The notes beneath the pieces are model-generated. The model saw only the letters and a program-made list of their open reading frames with translations, was not told where the DNA came from and did not search any database. A stretch of DNA of 64,000 nucleotides from Streptacidiphilus carbonis (lineage in GTDB: Bacteria > Actinomycetota > Actinomycetes > Streptomycetales > Streptomycetaceae), in NCBI RefSeq assembly GCF_000787775.1, contig NZ_BBPM01000005.1:187084-251083 (forward strand), given 5' to 3'. The position numbers and the translations under genes were made by a program. Positions 51,696 to 64,000 of the stretch are shown one piece after another. Every line of letters starts with the position of its first letter. The first letter of the stretch is position 1.

Positions 51696-51747
51696 CCGGC
51701 GGCACCCGCGCCTTGGACAGCATCCCACCCCCTTGGACGGCACCCTC

Positions 51748-54168
51748 ATGCATCCCACCGATCTGCTGCTGAGCTGGCCCGCACCCGCGGCCGACTGGAA
51801 CGAGGCCGCGCCCGTCGGCAACGGCCGACTCGGCGCCATGGTCTTCGGCGGCGCCCACCGCGCCCGGATCCAGATCAACGACTCCACCGTATGGTCCGGC
51901 ACCCCCGGTGTCCCGGCCGCGGCCCTGGCGGCGGTCCGCGCGGCCGGAGCCGGGCCGGAGCGGCTGGACGAGGTCCGGGCCGCGGTCCGGGCCGGCGACC
52001 ACGACCGTGCCGAGGCCCTGCTGATGGCCTTCGAGGGCCGCTACAGCCAGGAGTTCCTGCCCTACGCCGACCTGTGGCTGACCGTGGCCGGCGGCGAGGA
52101 CGCCGACTACCGCGGCCGGACGCTCAACCTGGACACGGCGGTGGCCCAGGAGGACTTCGACCTCGACCGGACCCCGGTCCGCCGCCGGGTCTGGTGCGAC
52201 TCCGTCACCGGCACCCTGTGCGCGGCCGTGGAGGCCCGGGGCGGCACGATGGACCTGCACGTCGACCTGTCCACGCCGCTCCGCGAGGTGCACCGCTCGG
52301 CAGCCGCCGAAGGGCTCACAATGGGCGTGGAGATTCCGGTGGACGGCGCTCCGGCGCACGAGCCCGACGTGGCCGAGCCGCTGCGGTACGCCGACGGACC
52401 GGTCGACGGCTACGACCCGTTCGGGGCGCTCGCCCTGGCCGTCGCCACGGACGGCGAGGTGACCGCGGACGACGGCGGCCTGCTGGTCACCGGCGCCACG
52501 CGGCTCCTGGTCACGCTGGCCGGCTCCACCAACGCCGAGCGCCACTGGCACGGCAGGGCCACCGCGGACCGCGCCGCGCACCTGGACGGCGCAGCCGCGA
52601 CAGCCGCCCGCGCCGCCACCCGAGGCGCAGCCGCCCTGCTCGACGCCCACGAGGCCGAGGTGCGCGGCCTGCTCGGCGGCACCTCGCTGCGCTTCGGCGC
52701 ACGCCGCGCGGGCACCCACGACGTCGCCCGGGACATCCTCAGCGGGAAGGACGAACACCTCACCGCCACCGTGCTGTTCCAGTACGGCCGCTACCTGCTC
52801 GCCGCCGCCTCCCGTCCGAACGGCGGCCCCCCGGCCAACCTGCAGGGCATCTGGAACGGCGACCTGCGCCCCGCCTGGTCGTCCAACTACACCATCAACA
52901 TCAACACCCAGATGAACTACTGGGGCGCCGAGGCCGCCGGCCTGAGCACCTGCCACGAGCCGCTGTTCGACCTGCTGGACCACCTCGCCGTACAAGGTGC
53001 CGAGGTGGCCCGCGAGTTGTACGGAACGCGCGGCTGGATGGCGCACCACAACACCGACATGTGGGGCTGGGCCCTGCCGGTCGGCATGGGCCACGGCAAC
53101 CCCTCCTGGGCGATCTGGCAGATGGGCGGCGCCTGGCTGTCCCAACACCTCTGGGACCACTATGAGTTCACCCAGGACGCCGAGTTCCTTCGGAACCGCG
53201 CCTGGCCGCTGCTGCGCGGCTGCGCCGCCTTCCTGCTGGACTGGCTGGTCGAGGACCCCGACGGGGTCCACCTCGACACCGTCCCCTCCACCTCACCGGA
53301 GAACCTGTTCCTCACCCCCGACGGCGCGCCCGCCTCGCTCACCCACTCCAGCGCCATGGACTGCGCCCTGATCCGGGCCACCTTCGAGCGGACCCTGCGC
53401 ACCGCCGGGATCCTCGGCCTCAGCGACCCTCTGACCGACGAGATCCGCGCCGCCCTCCCCCGAGTGCGGCGACCCCAGGTCTCCGCCGGCGGCTGGCTGC
53501 AGGAGTGGGCCGACGACCTCCCCGAGGCCGATCGGCACCACCGCCACCTCTCCCAGCTGATCGCCGTCCACCCCCTCAGCTCGATCGACCCCGTCCTCAC
53601 CCCCGAACTGGCCGTCGCAGCAGCCAAACTGATGGACCGTCGCGGCCCCGGCGCGATGGGCTGGTCCTGGGCCTGGAAGATCGCCCTGCGGGCGCGGCTG
53701 CGCGACGCCGGCAACGCCCGGTCGCTGTTCCTGGAGGCAGCCAACCGGCTGGCCCACGACCCCGGCACCGACGCCCCGGTCGACGGCTCGCAGTGGGGCG
53801 GCCTGCTGCCGAACCTCTTCTCCACCCATCCGCCGTTCCAGATCGACGGCAACTACGGCTTCACGGCCGCTCTCACCGAAATGGTGCTGCAGAGCCACAC
53901 CGGCGTCCTGGACCTGCTGCCCGCCCTCCCCGCCCAGTGGCCCGACGGCGAGGCCGTGGACCTGCGCTGCCGCGGCGGCCTCGCGGTCGACTTCGGCTGG
54001 AGCGGCGGCGCACCGACCACCGTGACGGTCCGCAGAATCGCGGGGGACGACAGCCGACCGGTCCGGATCCGTCACCGCGACCGCACCACCGAGGTCTCCG
54101 TCCCCACCGGCAGTCAGCTCACCCTCGACGCGGAGCTGCGCCCCCGAGGGGAGCCGACGCCGTGCTGA
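51748..54168 (+). CDS. GH95 alpha-L-fucosidase-like enzyme, cytoplasmic
   Basis: An 806-residue GH95 protein. It opens with LLLSWPAPAADWNEAAPVGN, the usual start of the N-terminal beta domain, then an alpha/alpha barrel with NININTQMNYW (Asn384, Asn386), Glu518 in STSPEN as the likely acid, and Asp700 in FQIDGNYG. Typical GH95 length. No signal peptide, so it acts on imported oligosaccharides. The family also contains alpha-L-galactosidases and other activities, so fucose is the most likely but not proven product. ATG at 51748 was preferred to a TTG at 51733. Confidence 0.92.
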   Translation: MHPTDLLLSWPAPAADWNEAAPVGNGRLGAMVFGGAHRARIQINDSTVWSGTPGVPAAALAAVRAAGAGPERLDEVRAAVRAGDHDRAEALLMAFEGRYSQEFLPYADLWLTVAGGEDADYRGRTLNLDTAVAQEDFDLDRTPVRRRVWCDSVTGTLCAAVEARGGTMDLHVDLSTPLREVHRSAAAEGLTMGVEIPVDGAPAHEPDVAEPLRYADGPVDGYDPFGALALAVATDGEVTADDGGLLVTGATRLLVTLAGSTNAERHWHGRATADRAAHLDGAAATAARAATRGAAALLDAHEAEVRGLLGGTSLRFGARRAGTHDVARDILSGKDEHLTATVLFQYGRYLLAAASRPNGGPPANLQGIWNGDLRPAWSSNYTININTQMNYWGAEAAGLSTCHEPLFDLLDHLAVQGAEVARELYGTRGWMAHHNTDMWGWALPVGMGHGNPSWAIWQMGGAWLSQHLWDHYEFTQDAEFLRNRAWPLLRGCAAFLLDWLVEDPDGVHLDTVPSTSPENLFLTPDGAPASLTHSSAMDCALIRATFERTLRTAGILGLSDPLTDEIRAALPRVRRPQVSAGGWLQEWADDLPEADRHHRHLSQLIAVHPLSSIDPVLTPELAVAAAKLMDRRGPGAMGWSWAWKIALRARLRDAGNARSLFLEAANRLAHDPGTDAPVDGSQWGGLLPNLFSTHPPFQIDGNYGFTAALTEMVLQSHTGVLDLLPALPAQWPDGEAVDLRCRGGLAVDFGWSGGAPTTVTVRRIAGDDSRPVRIRHRDRTTEVSVPTGSQLTLDAELRPRGEPTPC

Positions 54169-55181
54169 CGGCCGGCGACCTCCCCGAGCTGTTCGGCTAC
54201 CGGAGCGACTACCGGGAACCCGCGGACTTCGACGCCTTCTGGAAGGGCACCCTCGCCGACTCGCGCGCCGACCGGGGGGCCGGGCTCGACCTGACTCCGG
54301 TGCACACCGGCCTGGAGACCGTGGAGGTCTTCGACGCCGCCTTCCCCGGCTTCGCCGGCCATCCGGTGCGCGGCTGGCTGCGGCTGCCCCGGCACCGCAG
54401 CGGGCCGCTGCCCGCCGTCGTGCAGTTCCACGGCTACGGCAGCGGACGCGGCGCCCCCGTGGACGACCTGCTGTGGGCGTCGGCCGGCTACGCCCACCTG
54501 GTCATGGACACCCGCGGGCAGGGCGGCGCCTGGGCCGGCGGCGGCGCGACGCCCGACCCGGTCGGCTCCGGCCCCTCCCACCCCGGCTTCCTCACCCGCG
54601 GCATCCAGGACAAGGAGACCTACGTCTACCGCCGGGTCTTCACCGACGCGGTACGGGCGGTGGACGCGCTGCGAGCCTGTGAGCACGTCGACGGCGAACG
54701 GATCGCGGCGATCGGCAACAGCCAGGGCGGCGGCATCGCCCTCGCCGTCGCCGGACTCGTCCCCGACCTGGCGGCCGCGCACATCCAGTCCCCGTTCCTC
54801 ACGGACGTCCGCCGGGCCACCCGGCTCACCGGCGAAGCCCCCTGGGACGAGCTGATCGGCTACCTCGCCGCCCGGCGCGAGCTGGTCGAGCAGACCTTCA
54901 CCACCCTCGGCTACTTCGACGGCCTGGCCTTCGCCGCCCGCGCGACCGCACCGGCCTGGTTCTCCGCCGGACTGCGGGACACCGTCTGCCCCCCGCAGAC
55001 CGCCGTCGCCGCCCACCACGCCTACGCCGGTCCCAAACAGCTGCGGCTGTGGGAGTTCAACGGCCATGACGCCGGCGGCTCCGAGGACCTGGCCATCGCC
55101 CTGAGCGCGTTCGGCGCGCTCCTCAAGACGTCGTCCCACCCGCACCCGCACAACGATCCGTCCCGAAAGCAGGCATCATGA
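54162..55181 (+). CDS. CE7 acetyl esterase (acetylxylan esterase-like)
   Basis: A 339-residue alpha/beta-hydrolase of carbohydrate esterase family 7, removing O-acetyl groups from acetylated sugars or cephalosporin-like esters. VQFHGYGSGRG near 90, the nucleophile Ser187 in GNSQGG, Asp273 in LRDTVCPP and His302 in FNGHDAGG are the triad and its context. No signal peptide. GTG start at 54162 inside the GH95 end (7-bp overlap), with AGGGGAG upstream. Co-location with GH95 suggests it deacetylates imported oligosaccharides. Confidence 0.92.
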   Translation: MLTAGDLPELFGYRSDYREPADFDAFWKGTLADSRADRGAGLDLTPVHTGLETVEVFDAAFPGFAGHPVRGWLRLPRHRSGPLPAVVQFHGYGSGRGAPVDDLLWASAGYAHLVMDTRGQGGAWAGGGATPDPVGSGPSHPGFLTRGIQDKETYVYRRVFTDAVRAVDALRACEHVDGERIAAIGNSQGGGIALAVAGLVPDLAAAHIQSPFLTDVRRATRLTGEAPWDELIGYLAARRELVEQTFTTLGYFDGLAFAARATAPAWFSAGLRDTVCPPQTAVAAHHAYAGPKQLRLWEFNGHDAGGSEDLAIALSAFGALLKTSSHPHPHNDPSRKQAS

Positions 55182-56527
55182 GAATCCAGAAGATCGTCGC
55201 CATGGGAGCCACCCTCGCCCTGGCGGCCGTGGTCTCCGGCTGCTCGTCCGGCTCCACCTCCGCGAGCGGCTCCAAGACCGTCAACTGGTGGACCTGGGAC
55301 GACAAGCAGGCCGCCGCCTACCAGGTCTGCGCCACCGATTTCGAGGCCGCCAACCCGGGCGTGACCGTCAAGATCTCCCAGTACGACGTGGCGGACTACT
55401 TCACCAAGCTCACCGCCGGATTCGTGGCCGGGAACGCCCCCGACGCCTTCCAGAACAGCGTGCAGTTCTTCCAGGCCTACGCCTCGCAGCACCAGTTGCT
55501 GCCGATGGACAGCTACATCGCCAAGGACAAGTTCGACCTGTCCCGCTTCTCGGTCGGCGTCGACGCCTGGAAGTACACCGACGGCAAGCAGTACGCCCTG
55601 CCGCTGGACTGGGCGGCCGCGGGCATCTACTACAACGACGCCACCCTGGCCAAGGCCGGATACACCCGGCAGCAGGCCGACTCGCTGACCTGGAACCCCG
55701 ACGACGGCGGCACGCTGGGCAAGATGATCGCCCACCTCACGGTCGACGCCAAGGGGGTCCGCGGCGACCAGCCGGGCTTCGACAAGAACAACGTCAAGAC
55801 CTACGGCTACGGCGAGATCGCAGCCAAGGACTTCATCGGCCAGACCACCTGGGGCCCGCTGGTCGAGTCCACCGGCTGGCGTATCAGCGACAAGGAGTCC
55901 TGGCCCACGGTGTTCAACTACGGCGACCCGCGGTTCGTGAAGACCATGGACTGGATCCGCTCCCTGACCGACAAGGGGTTCGCCCCCAAGATCGGCCAGT
56001 TCGGCGACAGCGTCAGCGACATCGACCTGCTGTCGTCCGGAAAGGTCGCCATGGAGAGCGCCGGCTCCTGGGAGGCCGCCACCTTCGTGAAGATCCCGGG
56101 CCTCAAGGTGGGCATCGCCCCCATGCCGTACGGCCCCGACGGCAAGACCCGGGCCGTGCTCAGCAACTCCAACGGCAACAACATCTGGGCCGGAACCAAG
56201 AACCCCGACCTGGCCTGGAAGTGGGTCTCCTACATGGGCTCCGAGGCCTGCCAGTCCAAGGCCTCGCTGACCGGCACCTTCTTCCCGTCGATCCCGGCCT
56301 CGATGGACGCCTCGGCCAAGGCGCTGGCCGCCAAGGGCGTCGACCTGTCGGTCTTCACCGGCATGCTGAAGAACAAGGAACTCATCGCCTCCCCGGTCTA
56401 CGTCAACGGCGCCGCCCTCCAGGCCGCGGTGGAGCCGCTCTTCCAGGCCTACTTCGCCGGTCAGAAGAGCGACTCCGTCTTCACCGACATGCAGAACCAG
56501 AGCAAGACCATCCTCGCCAAGAAGTGA
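55178..56527 (+). CDS. sugar ABC transporter substrate-binding lipoprotein
   Basis: A 449-residue family 1 solute-binding protein. The signal MRIQKIVAMGATLALAAVVS ends at Cys22 in VSGC, a lipobox, then VNWWTWDDKQAAAYQVCATD and the hinge strands typical of MalE-like receptors; the C-terminus NQSKTILAKK is full. ATG overlaps the CE7 stop (ATGA). It delivers the sugar to the two permeases upstream. Its position after the enzymes, rather than before the permeases, is uncommon but internal to one operon. Confidence 0.94.
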   Translation: MRIQKIVAMGATLALAAVVSGCSSGSTSASGSKTVNWWTWDDKQAAAYQVCATDFEAANPGVTVKISQYDVADYFTKLTAGFVAGNAPDAFQNSVQFFQAYASQHQLLPMDSYIAKDKFDLSRFSVGVDAWKYTDGKQYALPLDWAAAGIYYNDATLAKAGYTRQQADSLTWNPDDGGTLGKMIAHLTVDAKGVRGDQPGFDKNNVKTYGYGEIAAKDFIGQTTWGPLVESTGWRISDKESWPTVFNYGDPRFVKTMDWIRSLTDKGFAPKIGQFGDSVSDIDLLSSGKVAMESAGSWEAATFVKIPGLKVGIAPMPYGPDGKTRAVLSNSNGNNIWAGTKNPDLAWKWVSYMGSEACQSKASLTGTFFPSIPASMDASAKALAAKGVDLSVFTGMLKNKELIASPVYVNGAALQAAVEPLFQAYFAGQKSDSVFTDMQNQSKTILAKK

Positions 56528-56620
56528 ACCGGAAACCCGACAGCACCTGGTGATCCGGACCATCGGACACGGCCCACGACCGGGCCGGTCCGGTGGTCCG
56601 GACAATGGAAAGGACTCCCA

Positions 56621-58831
56621 GTGGCGGACACCTCCGTGCGGATCGTCGCCCTGCGCGCGAGCGGCACCTCACTCGTCGTGGAACTCGCCGAGCCGCTGCC
56701 CAGAGTCCTCCACTGGGGAGCGGACCTCGGCGACCTGACGGCGACCGACCTGGCCGCGCTCGCCCTCACCGACGAGCCGGCGGTGCTCAACAACTCCATC
56801 GACGTCCCGCGCAGGTTCACCGTCTGGCCCACCGAGGCCGACGGCTGGTCGGGCACCCCCGCCCACACCGGCCACCTCGACGGCGCCTCGGGCGCGCCCC
56901 GGCTCGCCCTCAAGGGCGTCACCCACCGCGAGCACCCCGAGGGCGGCGGCGAGCTCGTCCTGGACCTGGCCGACACCGGCTCCGGCCTGGACGTCACCCT
57001 GACCTACCGGCTGGAACCCTCCGGCGTCCTCGCCGTGGTCGCCGAACTCACCCGCCGGGCAGCCGACTCCGCACCCGCCGGCACCGCAGTCCTCCAACCC
57101 GCGCCCTACGACCTCGGCCACGCCCTGGCCCTGCTGCCGCTCCCCCGCCGGGCCACCGAGATCCTGGACTTCACCGGCAAGTGGAGCCGCGAGCGATCCC
57201 CCCAGCGCCGCCCGCTCGGCCACGGCACCCACTCCCGCGAGGTGCGCCGCGGCAAGCCCGGCGCGGACTCGCCCTACCTGCTGACGGTCGGCACCCCCGG
57301 CTTCGGCTTCCGCAGCGGAGAGGTGTGGGGCGTGCACGTCGCCTGGAGCGGCGACCAGCGCTACCTGGTGGAGCAGCTGCCCGAGGGCGCCGGCAGCCAC
57401 GCCTCGGTACTCGGCGGCGGCGAACTCCTGCGCGCCGGCGAGATCCGGCTCGCCCCGGGCCGGAGCTACCGCACCCCGGTGAGCCACTTCGCCTGGTCCG
57501 CCGACGGCCTGGACGGCCTGGCCGACCGCTTCCACACCCTGGTGCGGGCCCGCCCGGGACACCCGCGCGCCCCCAGGCCGCTGGTGCTGAACAGCTGGGA
57601 GGCGGTCTACTTCGACCACGACCTGGACCATCTGCGGCGGCTCGCGGACCGGGCGGCCGAGGTCGGCGTCGAACGGTTCGTGCTGGACGACGGCTGGTTC
57701 ACCGGCCGTCGGGCCGCCGACGCCGGGCTCGGGGACTGGAGCGTCGACCCGACCGTGTGGCCGGACGGGCTGGGCCCGCTGGCCGACCACGTCCGCGGGC
57801 TCGGCATGGACTTCGGCCTCTGGGTCGAGCCCGAGAGCGTCAACCTCGACTCCGCGCTGGCCCGCGCCCACCCCGACTGGGTACTCGGCCCGGCGGCCGG
57901 CCTCGGGCCGTCCTTCCGCGACCAGTACGTCCTGGACCTGGCCAACCCCGAGGTGTGGTCCTACCTGCTGCAGTCCCTGGACGAGCTGGTGACCACGTAT
58001 CAGATCGCCTTCCTGAAGTGGGACCACAACCGCGAGCTGCACGAGGCCGTGCACGGGCCCGGCGACCGCCCGGCCGCGCACGCCCAGGTCGACGCCCTGT
58101 ACCGGCTGCTGGACACGCTGCGCGAGCGCCGTCCCGGGCTGGAGGTCGAGAGCTGCGCGGGCGGCGGCGGACGGATCGACCTGGGCATCCTCGCCAGGAC
58201 CGACCGGGTCTGGCCCTCGGACTGCAACGACCCGGTGGAGCGCCAGACCATCCAGCGCTGGACCGGGCAGCTGCTGCCGCCCGAACTGGTCGGCACCCAC
58301 TTCGGCCCCTCCCCCAGCCACACCACGGCGCGGACCGGCAGCGACTCCTTCCGGCTGGCCACCGCGCTGTTCGGGCACGCCGGGATCGAGCAGGACCTGA
58401 CCCGGTGCTCGCCCGGTGAACTGGCCCGGATCACCGCCTGGACCGCGCTCCACCGCGAGCTGCGACCCCTGCTGCACGGCGGCCGCACGGTCCGCGCCGA
58501 CCTGGAGGACGACGCCCGGCTGCTGCACGGCGTCGTGGCCCCCGACGGCTCGGCGGCGCTGTACTGCTGGGTGCGGCTGGCGACCTCGGCCGAGGGGCAG
58601 TCAGGCCGGGTGCTGCTGCCCGGACTCGCAGCCGACGCCCGCTACCGGCTGCGGATCCGCACCGACCTCGGCCTGCCGTCCTTCCACCAGACCAGCGGCC
58701 CGGCCTGGCTGACCGGGGCGCTGCGGGACTGGATCCCGCTGCCGGGCTCCGTCCTCGCCCTGGCCGGCCTGCCGATGCCCACGCTCAACCCCGAACAGGC
58801 GCTGCTGATCGAGATCCGCCGGACCGCATAG
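56621..58831 (+). CDS. GH36 alpha-galactosidase, cytoplasmic
   Basis: A 736-residue GH36 enzyme. An N-terminal beta-supersandwich (1-310) is followed by a catalytic barrel with WFTGRRAADAGLGDWSVDP, nucleophile Asp468 in FLKWDHNRE and acid/base Asp534 in WPSDCND; a C-terminal beta domain follows. No signal peptide. It starts at GTG 56621, with AAAGGA 9 bp upstream and a 93-bp gap from the binding protein gene. It would remove alpha-galactose from imported oligosaccharides. Confidence 0.93.
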   Translation: MADTSVRIVALRASGTSLVVELAEPLPRVLHWGADLGDLTATDLAALALTDEPAVLNNSIDVPRRFTVWPTEADGWSGTPAHTGHLDGASGAPRLALKGVTHREHPEGGGELVLDLADTGSGLDVTLTYRLEPSGVLAVVAELTRRAADSAPAGTAVLQPAPYDLGHALALLPLPRRATEILDFTGKWSRERSPQRRPLGHGTHSREVRRGKPGADSPYLLTVGTPGFGFRSGEVWGVHVAWSGDQRYLVEQLPEGAGSHASVLGGGELLRAGEIRLAPGRSYRTPVSHFAWSADGLDGLADRFHTLVRARPGHPRAPRPLVLNSWEAVYFDHDLDHLRRLADRAAEVGVERFVLDDGWFTGRRAADAGLGDWSVDPTVWPDGLGPLADHVRGLGMDFGLWVEPESVNLDSALARAHPDWVLGPAAGLGPSFRDQYVLDLANPEVWSYLLQSLDELVTTYQIAFLKWDHNRELHEAVHGPGDRPAAHAQVDALYRLLDTLRERRPGLEVESCAGGGGRIDLGILARTDRVWPSDCNDPVERQTIQRWTGQLLPPELVGTHFGPSPSHTTARTGSDSFRLATALFGHAGIEQDLTRCSPGELARITAWTALHRELRPLLHGGRTVRADLEDDARLLHGVVAPDGSAALYCWVRLATSAEGQSGRVLLPGLAADARYRLRIRTDLGLPSFHQTSGPAWLTGALRDWIPLPGSVLALAGLPMPTLNPEQALLIEIRRTA

Positions 58832-58864
58832 CGGGCTTGCCCCCAGGGGCGCCCGCACAGGCAG

Positions 58865-58896
58865 GAGGGCCGACACCGCGCAGGGTGCCGGCCCTC
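58865..58896. terminator. terminator shared by GH36 and a small convergent gene
   Basis: 13-bp hairpin with one mismatch (58865-58877 and 58884-58896, loop gcgcag), 34 bp after the GH36 stop and 26 bp past the stop of the leftward small gene at 58923. Confidence 0.65.
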
Positions 58897-58922
58897 ACCG
58901 ATCCGCCGTCAGCAGCCGCCGG

Positions 58923-59093
58923 TCACCATCGGTACCAGCGTCCGCGCGCACCGGCGGATCCGGCGCCGCGGAACACGAAGCCCAGCAGCCACAGCACCAG
59001 TACGACGATCGCGATCCACCACAGAACGTGAACCGCGAAGCCCAGTCCACCGAGGAGCAGGGCCAGCAGCAGGACCAGAAGCAGTGCACCCAT
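58923..59093 (-). CDS. small hydrophobic membrane protein
   Basis: A 56-residue protein with two hydrophobic stretches, ALLLVLLLALLLGGLGFAV and VLWWIAIVVLVLWLLGFVF, and a short basic C-terminus (RGAGSAGARGRWYRW). AGGAGG at 59103-59108 precedes the ATG at 59093. It resembles the small DUF5670 or lmo0937-like proteins common in streptomycetes, whose role is unknown. Confidence 0.75.
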   Translation of the reverse strand: MGALLLVLLLALLLGGLGFAVHVLWWIAIVVLVLWLLGFVFRGAGSAGARGRWYRW

Positions 59094-59248
59094 AGTTATC
59101 ATCCTCCTGACCAGCGCGTGCCCCGGAACGCCGAACGCATGCACGCGATTCGACCGGCACGTTGCGTCCCCCGTCCAGCGGCGGTCTGTCAGCCGTCGCC
59201 GCCCCGGCCCGCATCCGGGTCCTCGACGGCGCGACCGCAGCTCCGGCT

Positions 59249-59989
59249 TCAGGACAGCACCAGCAGGTCCATCCAGCTGACGGCGGGTTCGGTGGGGGCC
59301 GCGGCCGCGGCGGCGTGCAGGCGGGCGAGGCCCCGGGCGTAGTCCTCGTCGGACAGGGCACGCAGTTTGGAGTCCGCGTCCCGGCGCAGTCCGCGCGCGA
59401 AGGCGTCCAGGGTCGGGGCGCTTCGCTGCGGCAGGGAGCGCAGGGACATCTGCTGGAAGCCGGCCGTGGCGAACGCCGTGCAGACCTGGCCGACGCTCGG
59501 ATAGGCGTCGACCAGGCGCGCCGTCTCCGGGAAGAACCGCACCCGCAGGTCCCGGTCGCAGCGGCCGGGGAAGGCGTTGCGGATCAGCACGGGAGCGCCG
59601 GGCCTGAGCACCCGGCGCAGTTCGCGGGCGACGGCCGGCAGATCGCTCAGATAGTGCAGCACCGAGCCGAACCAGGCCGCGTCCGCGCAGCCGTCCTCGA
59701 CCGGCAGCGCCTCGGCGCGGCCGTCCAGCGCCCGGATCGCCGCGGAGACCGGTATCAGCGCGCGCATCGCCTCGGCGGGTTCGACGGCCAGCACCTCGAC
59801 GCCGTACCAGTCGTGGAACGCGGCGGCGAACGCCCCGGTCCCGGCGCCGACGTCGAGCAGTGTCATGCCAGGTCCGAGCCTAGCCGCGGCGGCGACCGCG
59901 GTGCGCCAGGCCTCCAGACCGGATCTGGGAATCTCACGGGCTGCCCGGTAGTCCTCGGCGGCCTGGCGGTCGTACGTTGTTCCGGTCAT
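59249..59989 (-). CDS. class I SAM-dependent methyltransferase
   Basis: A 246-residue methyltransferase with TLLDVGAGTGAFAAAFHDWY as motif I, then VLAVEPAEAMRALIPVSAAI, DAAWFGSVLHYLSDLPAVAR and LRRVLRPGAPVLIRNAF. The C-terminal half is less conserved. ATG 59989, with GAGG about 8 bp upstream. It is divergent from the HelD/HelR gene, with a 296-bp region between them that contains the RAE-like repeat. A functional link to the helicase is not shown. Confidence 0.85.
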   Translation of the reverse strand: MTGTTYDRQAAEDYRAAREIPRSGLEAWRTAVAAAARLGPGMTLLDVGAGTGAFAAAFHDWYGVEVLAVEPAEAMRALIPVSAAIRALDGRAEALPVEDGCADAAWFGSVLHYLSDLPAVARELRRVLRPGAPVLIRNAFPGRCDRDLRVRFFPETARLVDAYPSVGQVCTAFATAGFQQMSLRSLPQRSAPTLDAFARGLRRDADSKLRALSDEDYARGLARLHAAAAAAPTEPAVSWMDLLVLS

Positions 59990-60130
59990 CGGGACAGCCT
60001 CGCTCCATTGACGGGGAGTCAAGAGCATAACGACCCACCGGGCCGGATTCGGCGAGCCTCCGGGCTGTCGCCACGCCGGTGACGGGAAGGAGGAAAACCC
60101 ACTCCTTGCCATATCCAACTTATAGCGTAC

Positions 60131-60155
60131 GGGGGGCCTTGCGGCAAGGCCCCCC
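60131..60155 (+). promoter_or_regulatory. RAE-like inverted repeat upstream of helR
   Basis: A G/C hairpin whose core is ccttgcggcaagg flanked by G6 and C6 runs, symmetrical over 25 bp (10-bp arms 60131-60140 and 60146-60155 with the gcggc loop). It matches the recalled rifamycin-associated element core (TTGCGGCAAGGCCCC exactly) found upstream of rifamycin-inactivating and helR genes. It lies 130 bp before the HelR start codon at 60286, and a TATAGC-like -10 element is at 60121-60126. Confidence 0.7.
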
Positions 60156-60285
60156 TGCTGCCGCACAATCGTGGGCCGAGGCCGCAACCTGCGGAAATGA
60201 GGATCGCGGCCGACATCGTCCGCGCGTGTGGAACGCGCGCGGACACCGATCACCCGGTATTCCCGATCCACTGGAGCTGGTTTTG

Positions 60286-62625
60286 GTGTCCACGTCATCG
60301 TCCTCGTCCGAAATCGATTCGGACAACGGCGCCCGACCCTCCGACGACTGGCGGGCCCGGGAGCTGCGGGCGGAGAACGAGTACGTCAGCACGCTGTACG
60401 ACCGCCTCGACTCCCAGCGCGATCTCGCCGTCTCCCGACTGCGGGACCTGCACCGACAGGACCGGGGCGGGACGGCCCAGTCGCGGATGGAGCGCGACAC
60501 CCTGGAGATCCACCACACCCGCCGGCTGTCGGAGCTGCACGCCGCCGAGTACGGGCTCTGCTTCGGCCGGATCGAGGACGCCGCCGGCGAGCGGCAGTAC
60601 ATCGGCCGCATCGCCCTGGCGGACGAGGAGCACGAGCCGCTGCTCACCGACTGGCGGGCGTCGGCCGCTGAGCCCTTCTACCGGGCGACGCCCGCGGCGC
60701 CCGGCGCGGTGACGGCCCGTCGGCACCTGCGCAGCAAGGGCCGGGCTGTCGTCGACTTCGACGACGACGCCTTCGGCCTGAACGCCGCCGAGCACCGGGA
60801 CAGCGCCGAGCTCAGCGGCGAGGCCGCGCTGCTCGCCTCGCTGACGGCCGACCGTACCGGTCGGATGGGCGACATCGTCTCCACCATCCAGTCCGAGCAG
60901 GACCGCGTCATCCGCTCCGAGCTCGGCGGTGTGCTGGTGGTGCAGGGCGGGCCGGGGACCGGCAAGACCGTGGTCGCCCTGCACCGCGCCGCCTACCTGC
61001 TCTACACCCACCGCGACCGGCTGGCCAGGAGCGGTGTGCTGGTCATCGGACCGAACACGACCTTCCTGCGCTACATCGACGAAGTGCTCCCCGCGCTGGG
61101 CGAGAGCGAGGTGGTGCTGAGCAGCATCGGCGCCCTCTACCCGGGCGTGACCGGCACGGACACCGAGACGCCCGAGGCCGCCGCCGTCAAGGGCGACGTG
61201 CGGATGGTCGGGGTGCTCACCGCCGCGCTGGCGGGACTGCGCCGGCTCCCGGAGCCCGACGAACCGTGGACCATCACCGTGGGCCGCAGGTCGGCCCGAC
61301 AGGAGCAGCTGGAGATCGGCCGGGCACTGTGCGAGCGGGCCCACGCCGCCGCGCACCGGTCCGGCGAGGCCCACAATCCGGCCCGGGCCGAACTGGTCGA
61401 GCGGCTCTCCTCGGAGCTGGCCCTGCGGATCGCCAAGCAGCGGGGCGCCGCGGACCGGGGCGCGAAGATGGACCTGGACGAGATCGCGGACCTGGCCGAC
61501 TCGCTCGTCGAGGAGCGCGACTTCCAGGCGCTGGTCGACCGGCTGTGGCCGCTGCTCAGCCCGGAGCAGCTGCTCACCACGCTGTTCGGCTCACCGGAGC
61601 TGCTGGAGCGGGCCACGCCGGGCTTCATCGCGGCCGAACGCGCCGCGCTGCTGCGCGAGCAGCCTGGACCGGACGGCGGGCCCGCCTGGACCACCGCCGA
61701 TGTGCCGCTGCTCGACGAGGCCGCCGAACTGCTCGGCCCGCTGCCCGGCAGCACCGCCGCCCGCGACAGCGGGCCCAGCGCCGCGGAGCTGGAGTTCGCG
61801 AAGATCGTCCTGGACGACTTCGGCGTGGGCCTGGTGGAGATGGACGCGCAGATGCTGGCGCGCCAGTACCAGGGCGAGCAGTCACTGCTGCCGCTGTCCG
61901 AGCGCGCGACCGAGGACCGGGAGTGGGCCTTCGGGCATGTGATCGTGGACGAGGCGCAGGAGCTGTCCCCGATGGACTGGCGGCTGCTGACCCGGCGCTG
62001 CCCCGGCCGCTCCATGACCATCGTCGGCGACCTGGCGCAGACCGGAGCTCCGGCCGGGCTCAGCTCCTGGGGCGAGGCCCTGGACGCCTACACGGCCGGG
62101 CGCTGGCGCACGGTCGAACTCACCGTCAACTACCGCACCCCGGCCGAGATCATGCAGGTCACCGAGGGCGTCCTGCGTGCGGTCGACCCGGCGCTGACCG
62201 CCCCCACCGCGGTGCGCAGCGGCGGGACCCGCCCGTGGAGCCTGCGCATCCCCGCGGACGGCCGGGGACCGGCGCTGCGCGCCGCCGTCGAACAGGAGGT
62301 CGCGGCGCTGGGCGGCGGCCGGATGGCGGTCATCCACGCGCCGTCCCTGTCGGCCGGCGTCGTCGACACACTGGCCGAGCTGGACGGCGTCACCGTCGCC
62401 GACGGTCCTTCGGCGCTGGACTCGCCGGTCGTCCTGATGACGCCGGGGCAGACCAAGGGCCTCGAGTTCGACGCGGTCCTGGTCGTGGAGCCCACGGAGA
62501 TCCTCGCGACCGGCAGCCGCGGCGTGAACGACCTCTATGTCGCCCTCACCCGTGCCACCAAGACCCTCGGGGTCCTGCACAGCGAGGCGTTGCCGGAGAT
62601 GCTGGCAGGCCTGGAAACCCGCTGA
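60286..62625 (+). CDS. helR: HelD-family RNA polymerase-associated helicase-like protein, probable HelR
   Basis: A 779-residue UvrD/HelD-like ATPase: N-terminal coiled-coil (about 25-85, ELRAENEYVSTLYDRLDSQR), Q-motif region IQSEQDRVIR (201-210), Walker A GGPGTGKT (221-228), Walker B VIVDEAQEL (552-560), GDLAQTG (581-587), VNYRTPAEIM (614-623), and VALTRATK near 752. HelD proteins displace RNA polymerase from DNA; the HelR subgroup rescues polymerase trapped by rifamycins. Assignment to HelR rests on the upstream RAE-like repeat, not the protein alone. The GTG at 60286 has GGAG 9 bp upstream; no other rifamycin enzyme is nearby. Confidence 0.85.
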   Translation: MSTSSSSSEIDSDNGARPSDDWRARELRAENEYVSTLYDRLDSQRDLAVSRLRDLHRQDRGGTAQSRMERDTLEIHHTRRLSELHAAEYGLCFGRIEDAAGERQYIGRIALADEEHEPLLTDWRASAAEPFYRATPAAPGAVTARRHLRSKGRAVVDFDDDAFGLNAAEHRDSAELSGEAALLASLTADRTGRMGDIVSTIQSEQDRVIRSELGGVLVVQGGPGTGKTVVALHRAAYLLYTHRDRLARSGVLVIGPNTTFLRYIDEVLPALGESEVVLSSIGALYPGVTGTDTETPEAAAVKGDVRMVGVLTAALAGLRRLPEPDEPWTITVGRRSARQEQLEIGRALCERAHAAAHRSGEAHNPARAELVERLSSELALRIAKQRGAADRGAKMDLDEIADLADSLVEERDFQALVDRLWPLLSPEQLLTTLFGSPELLERATPGFIAAERAALLREQPGPDGGPAWTTADVPLLDEAAELLGPLPGSTAARDSGPSAAELEFAKIVLDDFGVGLVEMDAQMLARQYQGEQSLLPLSERATEDREWAFGHVIVDEAQELSPMDWRLLTRRCPGRSMTIVGDLAQTGAPAGLSSWGEALDAYTAGRWRTVELTVNYRTPAEIMQVTEGVLRAVDPALTAPTAVRSGGTRPWSLRIPADGRGPALRAAVEQEVAALGGGRMAVIHAPSLSAGVVDTLAELDGVTVADGPSALDSPVVLMTPGQTKGLEFDAVLVVEPTEILATGSRGVNDLYVALTRATKTLGVLHSEALPEMLAGLETR

Positions 62626-62657
62626 CGCCCGATCAATTCCGGCTCGCACCCAGTCTC

Positions 62658-62702
62658 TTGACAGTACATCACCCATACGCCACGGTGTCCTACAACGTTG
62701 TA
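62658..62702 (+). promoter_or_regulatory. -35 element and LacI-like palindrome upstream of GH54
   Basis: A consensus -35 TTGACA lies at 62658-62663 and a perfect 12-bp palindrome tacaacgttgta at 62691-62702, with a central CG as in LacI-family operators. A clear -10 at normal spacing is not visible. It is about 30 bp before the start codon at 62733. Confidence 0.5.
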
Positions 62703-62732
62703 ATGGTAGGAGAGACAGAGAGCGGGACACCC

Positions 62733-64000
62733 ATGCCCCAAAGGAGATCCTTACTGCAGGCCCTGCTGTCCACGGTGGCGGCCCTCGGGCTGGTCCTCGG
62801 CGTCGTGATCGGCCTACCGGCCGTCTCGGAGGCCGCCGGGTCGCTGCCATGCGACATCTACGCGGCCGCGGGCACCCCATGCGTCGCCGCCCACAGCACC
62901 GTGCGCGCCCTGTTCTCCTCCTACAACGGCCCGTTGTACCAGGTCACCCGGGCCTCGGACGGGGCCACCGCCGACATCGGCCTGCTGACCCAGGGCGGGT
63001 ACGCCGCCGCCGGGGCGCAGGACGCCTTCTGCGGCGGCAGCACCTGCCGGATCAGCCGGATCTACGACCAGACCTCGCGCCACAACGACCTCACCCCGGG
63101 GCCGGCCGGCGGCGCGGGGGCGGCGGACCGCGGGGCCGATGCCGGTGAGCTCTCGGTGAGTGCCGGCGGACACAAGGTCTACGGCATCTGGATATCCCCG
63201 GGCGTCGGCTACCGCTACAACGGCGCGGCCTCGGGCGTGGCCGTCAACGGGCAGGCCGAGGGGGCCTACATGGTCGCCAGCGGCACCCACGTCGGCTCGG
63301 AGTGCTGCTTCGACTACGGCAACGCGGAGTCCACGCCGTACGACACCGGCAACGGCCACATGGACGCCGTGTCCATCGCGACCACCTGCTACTTCGCTCC
63401 GTGCACCGGGTCCGGCCCCTGGGTCGAGGCCGACATGGAGAACGGCATGTTCCAGGGCGGCAACGGCTCCAACACCGCGAACGCCGGCAACGGCAGCGCC
63501 TTCGTCACGGCCGTGCTGAAGGACAACGGGCAGACGACCTACGCCCTCAAGGGCGGCGACTCCGAGTCCGGCGGCCTGTCGACCTGGTGGAGCGGACCGC
63601 TGCCGACCAGGGGCGGTTACCAGCCGATGCACCAGGAGGGCGGCATCATCCTGGGCACCGGCGGCGACAACAGCAATCGCAACATGGGCAGCTTCTTCGA
63701 GGGCGTCATGGTGGCCGGCTATCCCACCGACGCCGCCGAGAACGCGGTCCAGGCGAACGTCGTCTCGGTCGGCTACTCAGGGGAGACCAATGTCCCCAAC
63801 GGCCCGCAGGGGACCATCACCGGACCCGGCGGCCAGTGCGTGGACGTCGCCGCGGACGACACCGGCGTGGACGGCGCGGCGGTGCAGTTGTGGAACTGCC
63901 AGTCCTACGCCGAGGACCAGCACTGGACCCACAACCCCAACGGCTCGCTCACCACACTGGGGCGCTGCCTGGACATCAACGGCAACGGCACCGCCAACGG
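62733..64000 (+). CDS. secreted GH54 alpha-L-arabinofuranosidase with ricin-type lectin domain, 3-prime end beyond window
   Basis: The first 422 residues are visible. Signal MPQRRSLLQALLSTVAALGL to about 35. The GH54 domain follows: ECCFDYG with the adjacent Cys191-Cys192 pair that forms an unusual vicinal disulphide in this family, the nucleophile Glu236 in DMENGMFQGG and the probable acid Asp312 in GGDNSNRN. From about 362 the sequence GGQCVDVAADDTGVDGAAVQ and LWNCQSYAEDQHW is a ricin B-like (CBM13-like) module, not the usual CBM42. The gene continues past 64000. It releases arabinose from arabinoxylan or arabinan. Confidence 0.9.
   Translation, partial: MPQRRSLLQALLSTVAALGLVLGVVIGLPAVSEAAGSLPCDIYAAAGTPCVAAHSTVRALFSSYNGPLYQVTRASDGATADIGLLTQGGYAAAGAQDAFCGGSTCRISRIYDQTSRHNDLTPGPAGGAGAADRGADAGELSVSAGGHKVYGIWISPGVGYRYNGAASGVAVNGQAEGAYMVASGTHVGSECCFDYGNAESTPYDTGNGHMDAVSIATTCYFAPCTGSGPWVEADMENGMFQGGNGSNTANAGNGSAFVTAVLKDNGQTTYALKGGDSESGGLSTWWSGPLPTRGGYQPMHQEGGIILGTGGDNSNRNMGSFFEGVMVAGYPTDAAENAVQANVVSVGYSGETNVPNGPQGTITGPGGQCVDVAADDTGVDGAAVQLWNCQSYAEDQHWTHNPNGSLTTLGRCLDINGNGTAN

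What the first reader, a model, noticed from the sequence alone, without database searches (positions are those of the whole stretch)
60131..62625. Stand-alone RAE-helR rifamycin resistance unit
A HelD-like protein with all helicase motifs has a 25-bp near-perfect G/C hairpin in its leader whose core contains TTGCGGCAAGGCCCC, matching the rifamycin-associated element I recall from the literature on actinomycete rifamycin resistance. This indicates HelR, which protects RNA polymerase. No rifamycin-inactivating gene (ADP-ribosyl, phospho- or glycosyltransferase, monooxygenase) is present beside it, and the divergent gene is an unassigned methyltransferase.
Basis: partly seen in the sequence, partly recalled or inferred. 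Interest (0 to 1): 0.78.

Follow-up and report, generated by a model that had tools for sequence, protein, structure and literature searches.

The report
Rifamycin shield gene, back-to-back promoters
A bacterial gene predicted to shield RNA polymerase from rifamycin antibiotics sits behind a known drug-response DNA palindrome which, in 79 of 84 site comparisons beside several resistance genes, lies between two back-to-back promoter-like sequences that likely form the drug-sensing switch.

Summary
Window 60131-60155 is a perfect 25-bp palindrome with the rifamycin-associated element (RAE) core, before an intact Class II HelD/HelR-type gene (60286-62625). "Stand-alone" is true locally, but the genome also has an rph behind a second, slightly diverged RAE.

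(1) The RAE is the centre of a composite of about 110 bp. In 84 gene-oriented sites beside helR, rox-like, rgt-like, rph and arr genes, the palindrome gives overlapping -35-like boxes on both strands, each followed at 19 nt by a -10-like box (82/84 rightward, 80/84 leftward). The leftward one runs into a covarying stem (55/83), with a T run in 34/83; the window keeps the stem but not the T run. (2) This protein belongs to a distinct lineage (22 genomes, all with an RAE upstream). Two of 22 have an intact rgt-like gene between RAE and helR and four keep remnants, so the bare unit is likely derived.

RAE-helR is known. The back-to-back layout was not seen in the searched listings and makes the open question of how RAEs sense rifamycin testable. 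No activity was measured.

The parts
60131..60155 (.). 25-bp perfect palindrome holding the RAE core (CTTGCGGCAAG), centre 60143
60139..60144 (+). rightward (sense) -35-like box TTGCGG inside the palindrome
   Evidence: sequence; in the 84 compared sites the search pattern fixes this place; a review reports that the -35 of M. smegmatis helD promoter 2 overlaps the RAE
60164..60169 (+). rightward -10-like box CACAAT, 19-nt spacer; predicted start about 60176
   Evidence: A2 and T6 conserved in 82/84 sites and 22/22 orthologs
60142..60147 (-). leftward -35-like box TTGCCG, overlapping the rightward one by 3 bp
   Evidence: sequence
60117..60122 (-). leftward -10-like box TAAGTT at 19-nt spacing (TATAAG at 60119-60124 at 17 nt); predicted start about 60110
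   Evidence: A2 and T6 conserved in 80/84 sites and 21/22 orthologs
60084..60110 (-). stem GGCAAGGAG/CTCCTTCCC with which a leftward transcript would begin; terminator-like in part of the relatives, but here without a T run
   Evidence: weak taken alone (z -0.04, none found)
60273..60276 (+). GGAG, likely ribosome-binding site of helR
   Evidence: sequence
60286..62625 (+). helR-type gene, 779 aa, Class II HelD
60946..60969 (+). Walker A motif GGPGTGKT (residues 221-228)
61819..61842 (+). likely tip of the primary-channel loop, FGVGLVEM (residues 512-519), between predicted helices 499-511 and 521-528
   Evidence: low model confidence at 513-519

Best explanation
This is a helR-type gene, predicted to free RNA polymerase from rifamycin, placed behind a rifamycin-associated element whose palindrome carries overlapping -35-like boxes on both strands and so joins two back-to-back promoter-like sequences, which would act as a drug-responsive choice of direction. 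Shown by sequence: the palindrome, -10-like boxes at a fixed 19-nt spacing on both sides beside resistance genes of five kinds, and a covarying stem at the predicted start of the leftward transcript in most sites. Inferred: without drug, RNA polymerase mostly takes the leftward promoter, whose boxes match the consensus better in 64 of 84 sites if a 17- or 19-nt spacer is allowed, and makes an RNA of about 30 nt that ends at the stem; this keeps the weak rightward promoter quiet because the shared -35 admits one polymerase at a time. Inferred: rifamycin-arrested initiation lowers productive use of the leftward promoter and lets drug-free polymerase fire rightward into helR; HelR then strips rifamycin from polymerase. 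Whether polymerase alone does this, or a protein on the palindrome sets the direction, is open.
For:: gene-oriented alignment of 84 site-orientations (83 sites) beside helR 29, rox-like 36, rgt-like 9, rph 7, arr 3. -10 A2 and T6 at a 19-nt spacer: 82/84 rightward, 80/84 leftward, both in 79/84; spacers 14-18 and 20 give 0-1 on either strand; 22/22 and 21/22 in HelR orthologs chosen by protein (the RAE core was then located by its pattern); strong stem at the predicted leftward start in 55/83 (controls 4/84, 12/83, 9/84); stem plus at least 4 T of 8 in 34/83 (controls 0, 0, 1); arms pair with their own partner (15.72 v 12.68; 0 of 20,000 permutations as high; control stretch 2935 of 5000); 84.6% of cells pair, 31 cells change on both sides v 16.0 shuffled (0 of 500 as high); centre base G in 68/84 and C at rightward -10 position 1 in 74/84 (T leftward in 81/84), both weakening the rightward side; two composites in the genome, before helR and rph; the rph copy has a called terminator on its leftward strand; 0 of 15 HelDs at 42-49% identity had an RAE core within 500 nt upstream; a review says the RAE is required for induction and overlaps the -35 of a mapped promoter in M. 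smegmatis.
Against: No transcript was measured. Nineteen-nt spacers are long; the standard scan (which allows 16-18 nt only) found no promoter, and no terminator, at the window. The window stem lacks a T run and folds no better than shuffles (z -0.04); 7/22 orthologs have stem plus T run. With the 19-nt register alone the leftward boxes are better in 25, equal in 44 and worse in 15 of 84. Two covariation measures did not exceed shuffles: pairs with two-sided change 6 v 5.6 (273 of 500 as high) and pair types 17 v 15.1 (82 of 500). The leftward -10 is lost at L104, L116, L153 and L155. G and C at -9 and +9, outside both the -35 boxes and the search pattern, are conserved (82/84, 79/84), which suits a protein operator. 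In B. subtilis, shortening the distance so that the promoters clash abolished induction, so that mechanism cannot be copied here. A sense promoter starting about 20 bp upstream of the RAE is reported in M. smegmatis and is not explained.
Confidence: 0.45

Rival explanations
1. The palindrome is the operator of an unknown dimeric regulator that responds to rifamycin or to stalled RNA polymerase; it controls the rightward promoter, and the leftward promoter is a by-product.
For: Positions -9 and +9, outside the -35 boxes and the search pattern, are conserved (82/84 and 79/84) and complementary in 78/84. The papers seen propose an unknown factor.
Against: It does not explain why the leftward -10 is kept at 19 nt in 80/84 sites or why a covarying stem sits at its predicted start. 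The papers seen name no such regulator.
Confidence: 0.35
2. The gene is a general RNA-polymerase-recycling HelD that does not displace rifamycin; its RAE only raises recycling when polymerase is blocked.
For: The primary-channel loop is 10 residues shorter than in M. smegmatis HelD (59 v 69) and the acidic stretch holding the reported Glu484/Asp485 pair has no clear counterpart. The tree puts RAE-less HelDs next to it, weakly (80/85, long-branch warning). It is below the NCBIfam HelR cut-offs.
Against: All 22 members found of the lineage have an RAE upstream, in six with an intact or broken rgt-like gene in between. The loop tip resembles tips of NF041254-type HelRs in some members (10 of 22 reach at most 1 of 400 shuffles).
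Confidence: 0.15
3. The leftward promoter is real but makes a small RNA with a job of its own, unrelated to switching.
For: Covarying stem, with a T run in 34/83 sites.
Against: The predicted RNA is little more than the stem, and no Rfam family reaches its gathering score at the window.
Confidence: 0.05

Closest known systems
RAE-controlled helR of S. venezuelae (SVEN_6029) and M. abscessus (MAB_3189c), as told in passages of PMC10719064 and PMC8655204
   Same: Class II HelD-type gene directly behind a RAE palindrome; the -35 of a helD promoter overlaps the RAE in M. smegmatis.
   Different: Separate protein lineage with a loop shorter than that of M. smegmatis HelD; the back-to-back promoter and terminator-like layout is described here from sequence; some relatives keep an rgt-like gene between RAE and helR.
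B. subtilis helD/pps dual-promoter rifampicin alarm (PMC12802891)
   Same: Two opposed promoters before a helD gene; there the promoter that does not make helD is the stronger one, as is predicted here.
   Different: There the promoters are convergent and lose induction when brought close enough to clash; here they point apart and share the -35 region.
Rifamycin-inactivating enzyme genes with RAE (Rgt, Rph, Rox, Arr)
   Same: The same composite sits before such genes.
   Different: They modify the drug; HelR is a target-protection protein.

Membership tests
RAE | 19-bp palindrome of RAE type | tested here: met
   the consensus letters are recalled, the 19-bp palindrome is stated in PMC10719064
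RAE | lies before a rifamycin-resistance-type gene | tested here: met
RAE | needed for induction by rifamycin | not testable with these tools
   needs expression data
HelR / Class II HelD | Class II HelD sequence and fold | tested here: met
HelR / Class II HelD | Walker A and DEAQ-type motor motifs | tested here: met
HelR / Class II HelD | primary-channel loop with the acidic tip pair needed for rifampicin resistance in M. abscessus | tested here: inconclusive
   loop present but 59 v 69 residues in M. smegmatis HelD; tip FGVGLVEM; alignment of the pair ambiguous; tip pLDDT under 50
HelR / Class II HelD | score over an NCBIfam HelR model cut-off (not a defining feature: both are 'exception' models with strict cut-offs) | tested here: not met
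   674 v 1100 (NF041258), 460 v 750 (NF041254)
HelR / Class II HelD | groups with characterised HelR in a tree | tested here: inconclusive
   own clade 100/100, in the half with M. smegmatis HelD and RAE-less HelDs (82/92); long-branch warning; SVEN_6029 and MAB_3189c themselves were not in the tree
HelR / Class II HelD | removes rifamycin from RNA polymerase | not testable with these tools
   needs biochemistry
B. subtilis-type convergent dual-promoter alarm | two convergent, non-overlapping promoters | tested here: not met
   boxes here point apart and overlap at -35

The most novel reading that the evidence does not exclude
The RAE is a regulator-free rifamycin sensor: two back-to-back promoters share one palindromic -35, RNA polymerase itself is the sensor, and a strong decoy promoter that makes only a ~30-nt self-terminating RNA holds the resistance promoter down until the drug stops it. 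The same device was fitted to five kinds of resistance gene across Actinobacteria.
Probability: 0.35. Interest if true: 0.85.

Novelty: new variant of a known kind. Interest (0 to 1): 0.6.

Why it matters
How RAEs sense rifamycin is said to remain to be elucidated in a 2026 paper (PMC12802891). The conserved leftward promoter-like sequence and its stem give a concrete, cheap test: map 5' ends and inactivate one -10 box at a time in a reporter. If right, RNA polymerase inhibitors would be read out by promoter choice rather than by a dedicated receptor, parallel to but built differently from the B. subtilis alarm. The rgt-like remnants suggest that drug inactivation can be lost while target protection keeps the same sensor.

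Tried and rejected
RNA hairpin function of the palindrome: rejected as the main reading, since positions +/-6 pair in only 28/84.

The TATA box as a rightward promoter upstream of the RAE: its position 6 would be C in 81/84 and no rightward -35 stands out at the right distance.

Structural RNA at the window: two Rfam matches far below gathering score, judged chance.

Methyltransferase and arabinofuranosidase neighbours as part of the unit: no tblastn match (E 1e-8) in 21 of 21 orthologous loci as fetched, each with roughly 1.5 kb or less of flank.

rgt-like remnant in the window itself: best piece E 0.005 and from the middle of the protein, so not claimed. Weak pieces in L180, L184 and L186 (E 5e-4 to 1e-3) were not counted either.

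Loop length: by a second anchor rule the 22 clade members have 54-65 residues, 15 RAE-less HelDs 56-72 and 5 mycobacterial-type rows 64-68, so the ranges touch; the first rule gave no length for the NF041254-type rows or the two own paralogs.

Loop-tip likeness to NF041254-type HelRs: mixed. Ten of 22 clade members reach at most 1 of 400 shuffles, the other 12 reach 5 to 263; 2 of 15 RAE-less HelDs reach 4 of 400; the 5 mycobacterial-type rows reach 71 or more. The tip-finding rule missed three training loops and mis-took one. Only suggestive.

One search folded three stretches; the L161 and L170 ones were placed off the stem and are not used. One search had a spacing slip in the pattern and found nothing; corrected.

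Full report

Genome context. The genome and its family are not named to me. The exact 17-base RAE pattern occurs once in its 8.46 Mb, reversed control 0; a 21-base pattern with up to 2 mismatches also matched one place, as did its reversed control. A composite pattern that I drew up after seeing both sites occurs twice, each without mismatch, control 0: before helR, and before a gene scoring 1631 bits to the Rph model (cut-off 999) on another contig, where the core reads CTTGCCACAAG. No arr (22 bits v 130), rgt (no match) or rox (best 214 v 800) passes its cut-off; a rox-like gene cannot be excluded, since a RAE-linked one elsewhere scores only 339. So the helR unit is stand-alone in place but not the genome's only RAE gene. 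The rpoB rifamycin region reads MDQTNPLSGLTHKRRLSALG; by recalled E. coli numbering D516, H526 and S531 are unchanged, so the polymerase is expected to be drug-sensitive.

The RAE is the middle of something larger. With the window locus this gave 150 sites. I oriented sites by the gene they precede, not by promoter features: 83 sites (84 orientations, since L078 has a gene on each side) lie before helR (29), rox-like (36), rgt-like (9), rph (7) or arr (3) genes by clustering. Of scanned representatives, the rph and arr ones pass their NCBIfam cut-offs; the one rox-like and three rgt-like ones match those models below the cut-offs. Of the other 67 sites, 64 were examined and 3 lay too near an edge; 16 of the 64 have both -10 boxes. 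Of these 16 the genes scanned include more helR, rox, rgt-like and one MFS transporter, and several loci end before the gene.

Promoter-like boxes. With the RAE centre as 0, the rightward strand has TTGCGG at -4 to +1 and CANAAT at +21 to +26. The leftward strand has the mirror image, TTGCCG and TANGTT at -21 to -26. Counting only -10 positions A2 and T6, a 19-nt spacer fits 82/84 rightward and 80/84 leftward (both in 79); spacers 14-18 and 20 fit 0-1 on either strand, and 21 and 22 fit 13 and 17 rightward, 0 leftward. The exceptions are L012 and L104 rightward and L104, L116, L153 and L155 leftward. In 22 orthologs of the window protein, chosen by protein similarity, the counts are 22/22 and 21/22. 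Two asymmetries weaken the rightward promoter: the centre base is G in 68/84, and -10 position 1 is C in 74/84, against T in 81/84 leftward. By matches to TTGACA/TATAAT the leftward pair is better in 64, equal in 7 and worse in 13 when it may use the 17- or 19-nt register; with the 19-nt register only it is better in 25, equal in 44 and worse in 15. A review reports that in M. smegmatis the RAE overlaps the -35 of a mapped helD promoter, that the RAE is required for induction, and that another sense promoter starts about 20 bp upstream (section 9 of PMC10719064); the last point is not explained here.

Terminator-like stem. A leftward RNA would start near -33 and could fold at once. A strong stem is there in 55/83 sites, against 4/84, 12/83 and 9/84 in three control stretches; stem plus at least 4 T in the next 8 bases in 34/83 against 0, 0 and 1. 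Own arms pair better than swapped ones (15.72 v 12.68, none of 20,000 permutations as high; with 47 distinct arms 12.27 v 10.0, none of 20,000), while a control stretch shows nothing (2935 of 5000). For a MAFFT alignment I took 62 of the 73 sites listed, which had already left out arr and all but two rgt-like sites; the 11 were dropped by eye, mostly for a poor stem, which favours the structure. There 84.6% of cells pair and 31 cells change on both sides against 16.0 in shuffles, but the number of pairs with two-sided change (6 v 5.6) and of pair types (17 v 15.1) do not stand out. The window stem scores well (20.8) but has no T run, folds no better than shuffles and is not called by the standard scan. 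The genome's rph copy is called, on its leftward strand.

The protein lineage. In a 35-row tree (RAE-linked HelRs of at least 600 aa, same-genus relatives, two of the own genome's paralogs and M. smegmatis HelD) the window protein forms a 100/100 clade with four same-genus proteins. It lies apart from 16 RAE-linked HelRs, of which two that were scanned score 1267-1271 to NF041254, and on the side of M. smegmatis HelD, mycobacterial-type HelRs and RAE-less HelDs of the same genus (82/92; long-branch warning). That NF041254 and NF041258 stand for the S. venezuelae and M. abscessus proteins is recalled, not tested. A scan of 294 family genomes listed 22 genomes at about 70-100% identity, then a gap to 51% and below. 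All 22 have an RAE upstream, 19 within 500 nt and 3 at about 820-1420 nt; 0 of 15 HelDs at 42-49% have the core within 500 nt. The primary-channel loop has 59 residues by one anchor rule, against 69 in M. smegmatis HelD and 76 in seven RAE-less HelDs; by a second rule over more rows the ranges touch. The likely tip is FGVGLVEM. The review names Glu484/Asp485 of M. smegmatis HelD as the pair whose counterparts are needed for rifampicin resistance in M. abscessus; no clear counterpart is seen.

How the bare unit arose. Of the 22 loci, 2 have an intact rgt-like gene between RAE and helR (L188, L192), 4 keep remnants (L176, L178, L181, L183; E about 1e-13 or better) and 16, the window among them, show none at that level. 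The two intact cases lie on different branches, and strongly supported branches force at least three changes of the 'none' state. Loss of the rgt-like gene from a RAE-rgt-helR arrangement is the likely history. This is description only.

Mechanism. Shown by sequence: palindrome, paired boxes, stem, gene. Inferred: both directions are used, they exclude each other at the shared -35, the leftward one wins without drug, and drug shifts the balance. The B. subtilis helD alarm gives a precedent for opposed promoters, but there they are convergent and lose induction when made to clash, so the step by which rifamycin favours the rightward promoter is the weakest part. A protein operator remains almost as likely: bases outside the -35 boxes are conserved too.

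Literature. Seen: passages and sections 8 and 9 of PMC10719064; outline with abstract, passages and sections 37 and 47-49 of PMC12802891; passages of PMC8655204 and PMC13246000. The primary RAE and HelR papers were not held. Searches whose listings, often capped at 8-20 of many papers, showed no description of the back-to-back layout: (open PMC papers only; no preprints or subscription journals).

Noticed in passing
G000 contig C134:242772-242820 (locus L170/L201): The genome's rph has an RAE whose palindrome is broken at one base (CTTGCCACAAG), so that the rightward -35 reads TTGCCA; it keeps both -10 boxes and a called leftward terminator.
   Followed up: partly
L035:229-1794: Actinoplanes aureus has an RAE composite before a 522-aa MFS transporter, a possible RAE-driven efflux pump.
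   Followed up: partly
L078: One RAE in Pseudonocardia xinjiangensis lies between an rgt-like gene and a helR pointing away from each other, so both directions may serve resistance.
   Followed up: no
L051, L053: Contigs labelled Gemmatimonadaceae carry the RAE composite before rox-like genes; a jump between phyla or misbinning was not tested.
   Followed up: no
window 51733-64000: helR and the methyltransferase sit between carbohydrate genes: GH95, acetyl xylan esterase, solute-binding protein and GH36 on the left, arabinofuranosidase with a ricin-B-type lectin domain on the right.
   Followed up: partly
G000:C121 (L203): rpoB rifamycin region reads MDQTNPLSGLTHKRRLSALG; the main resistance positions (recalled numbering) look unchanged.
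   Followed up: yes
alignment of 84 RAE sites, +29 to +60: The rightward leader has further weak conservation (GGCCGAGGCC, CTGCGGAAA) around and after the predicted start; its role is unknown.
   Followed up: no
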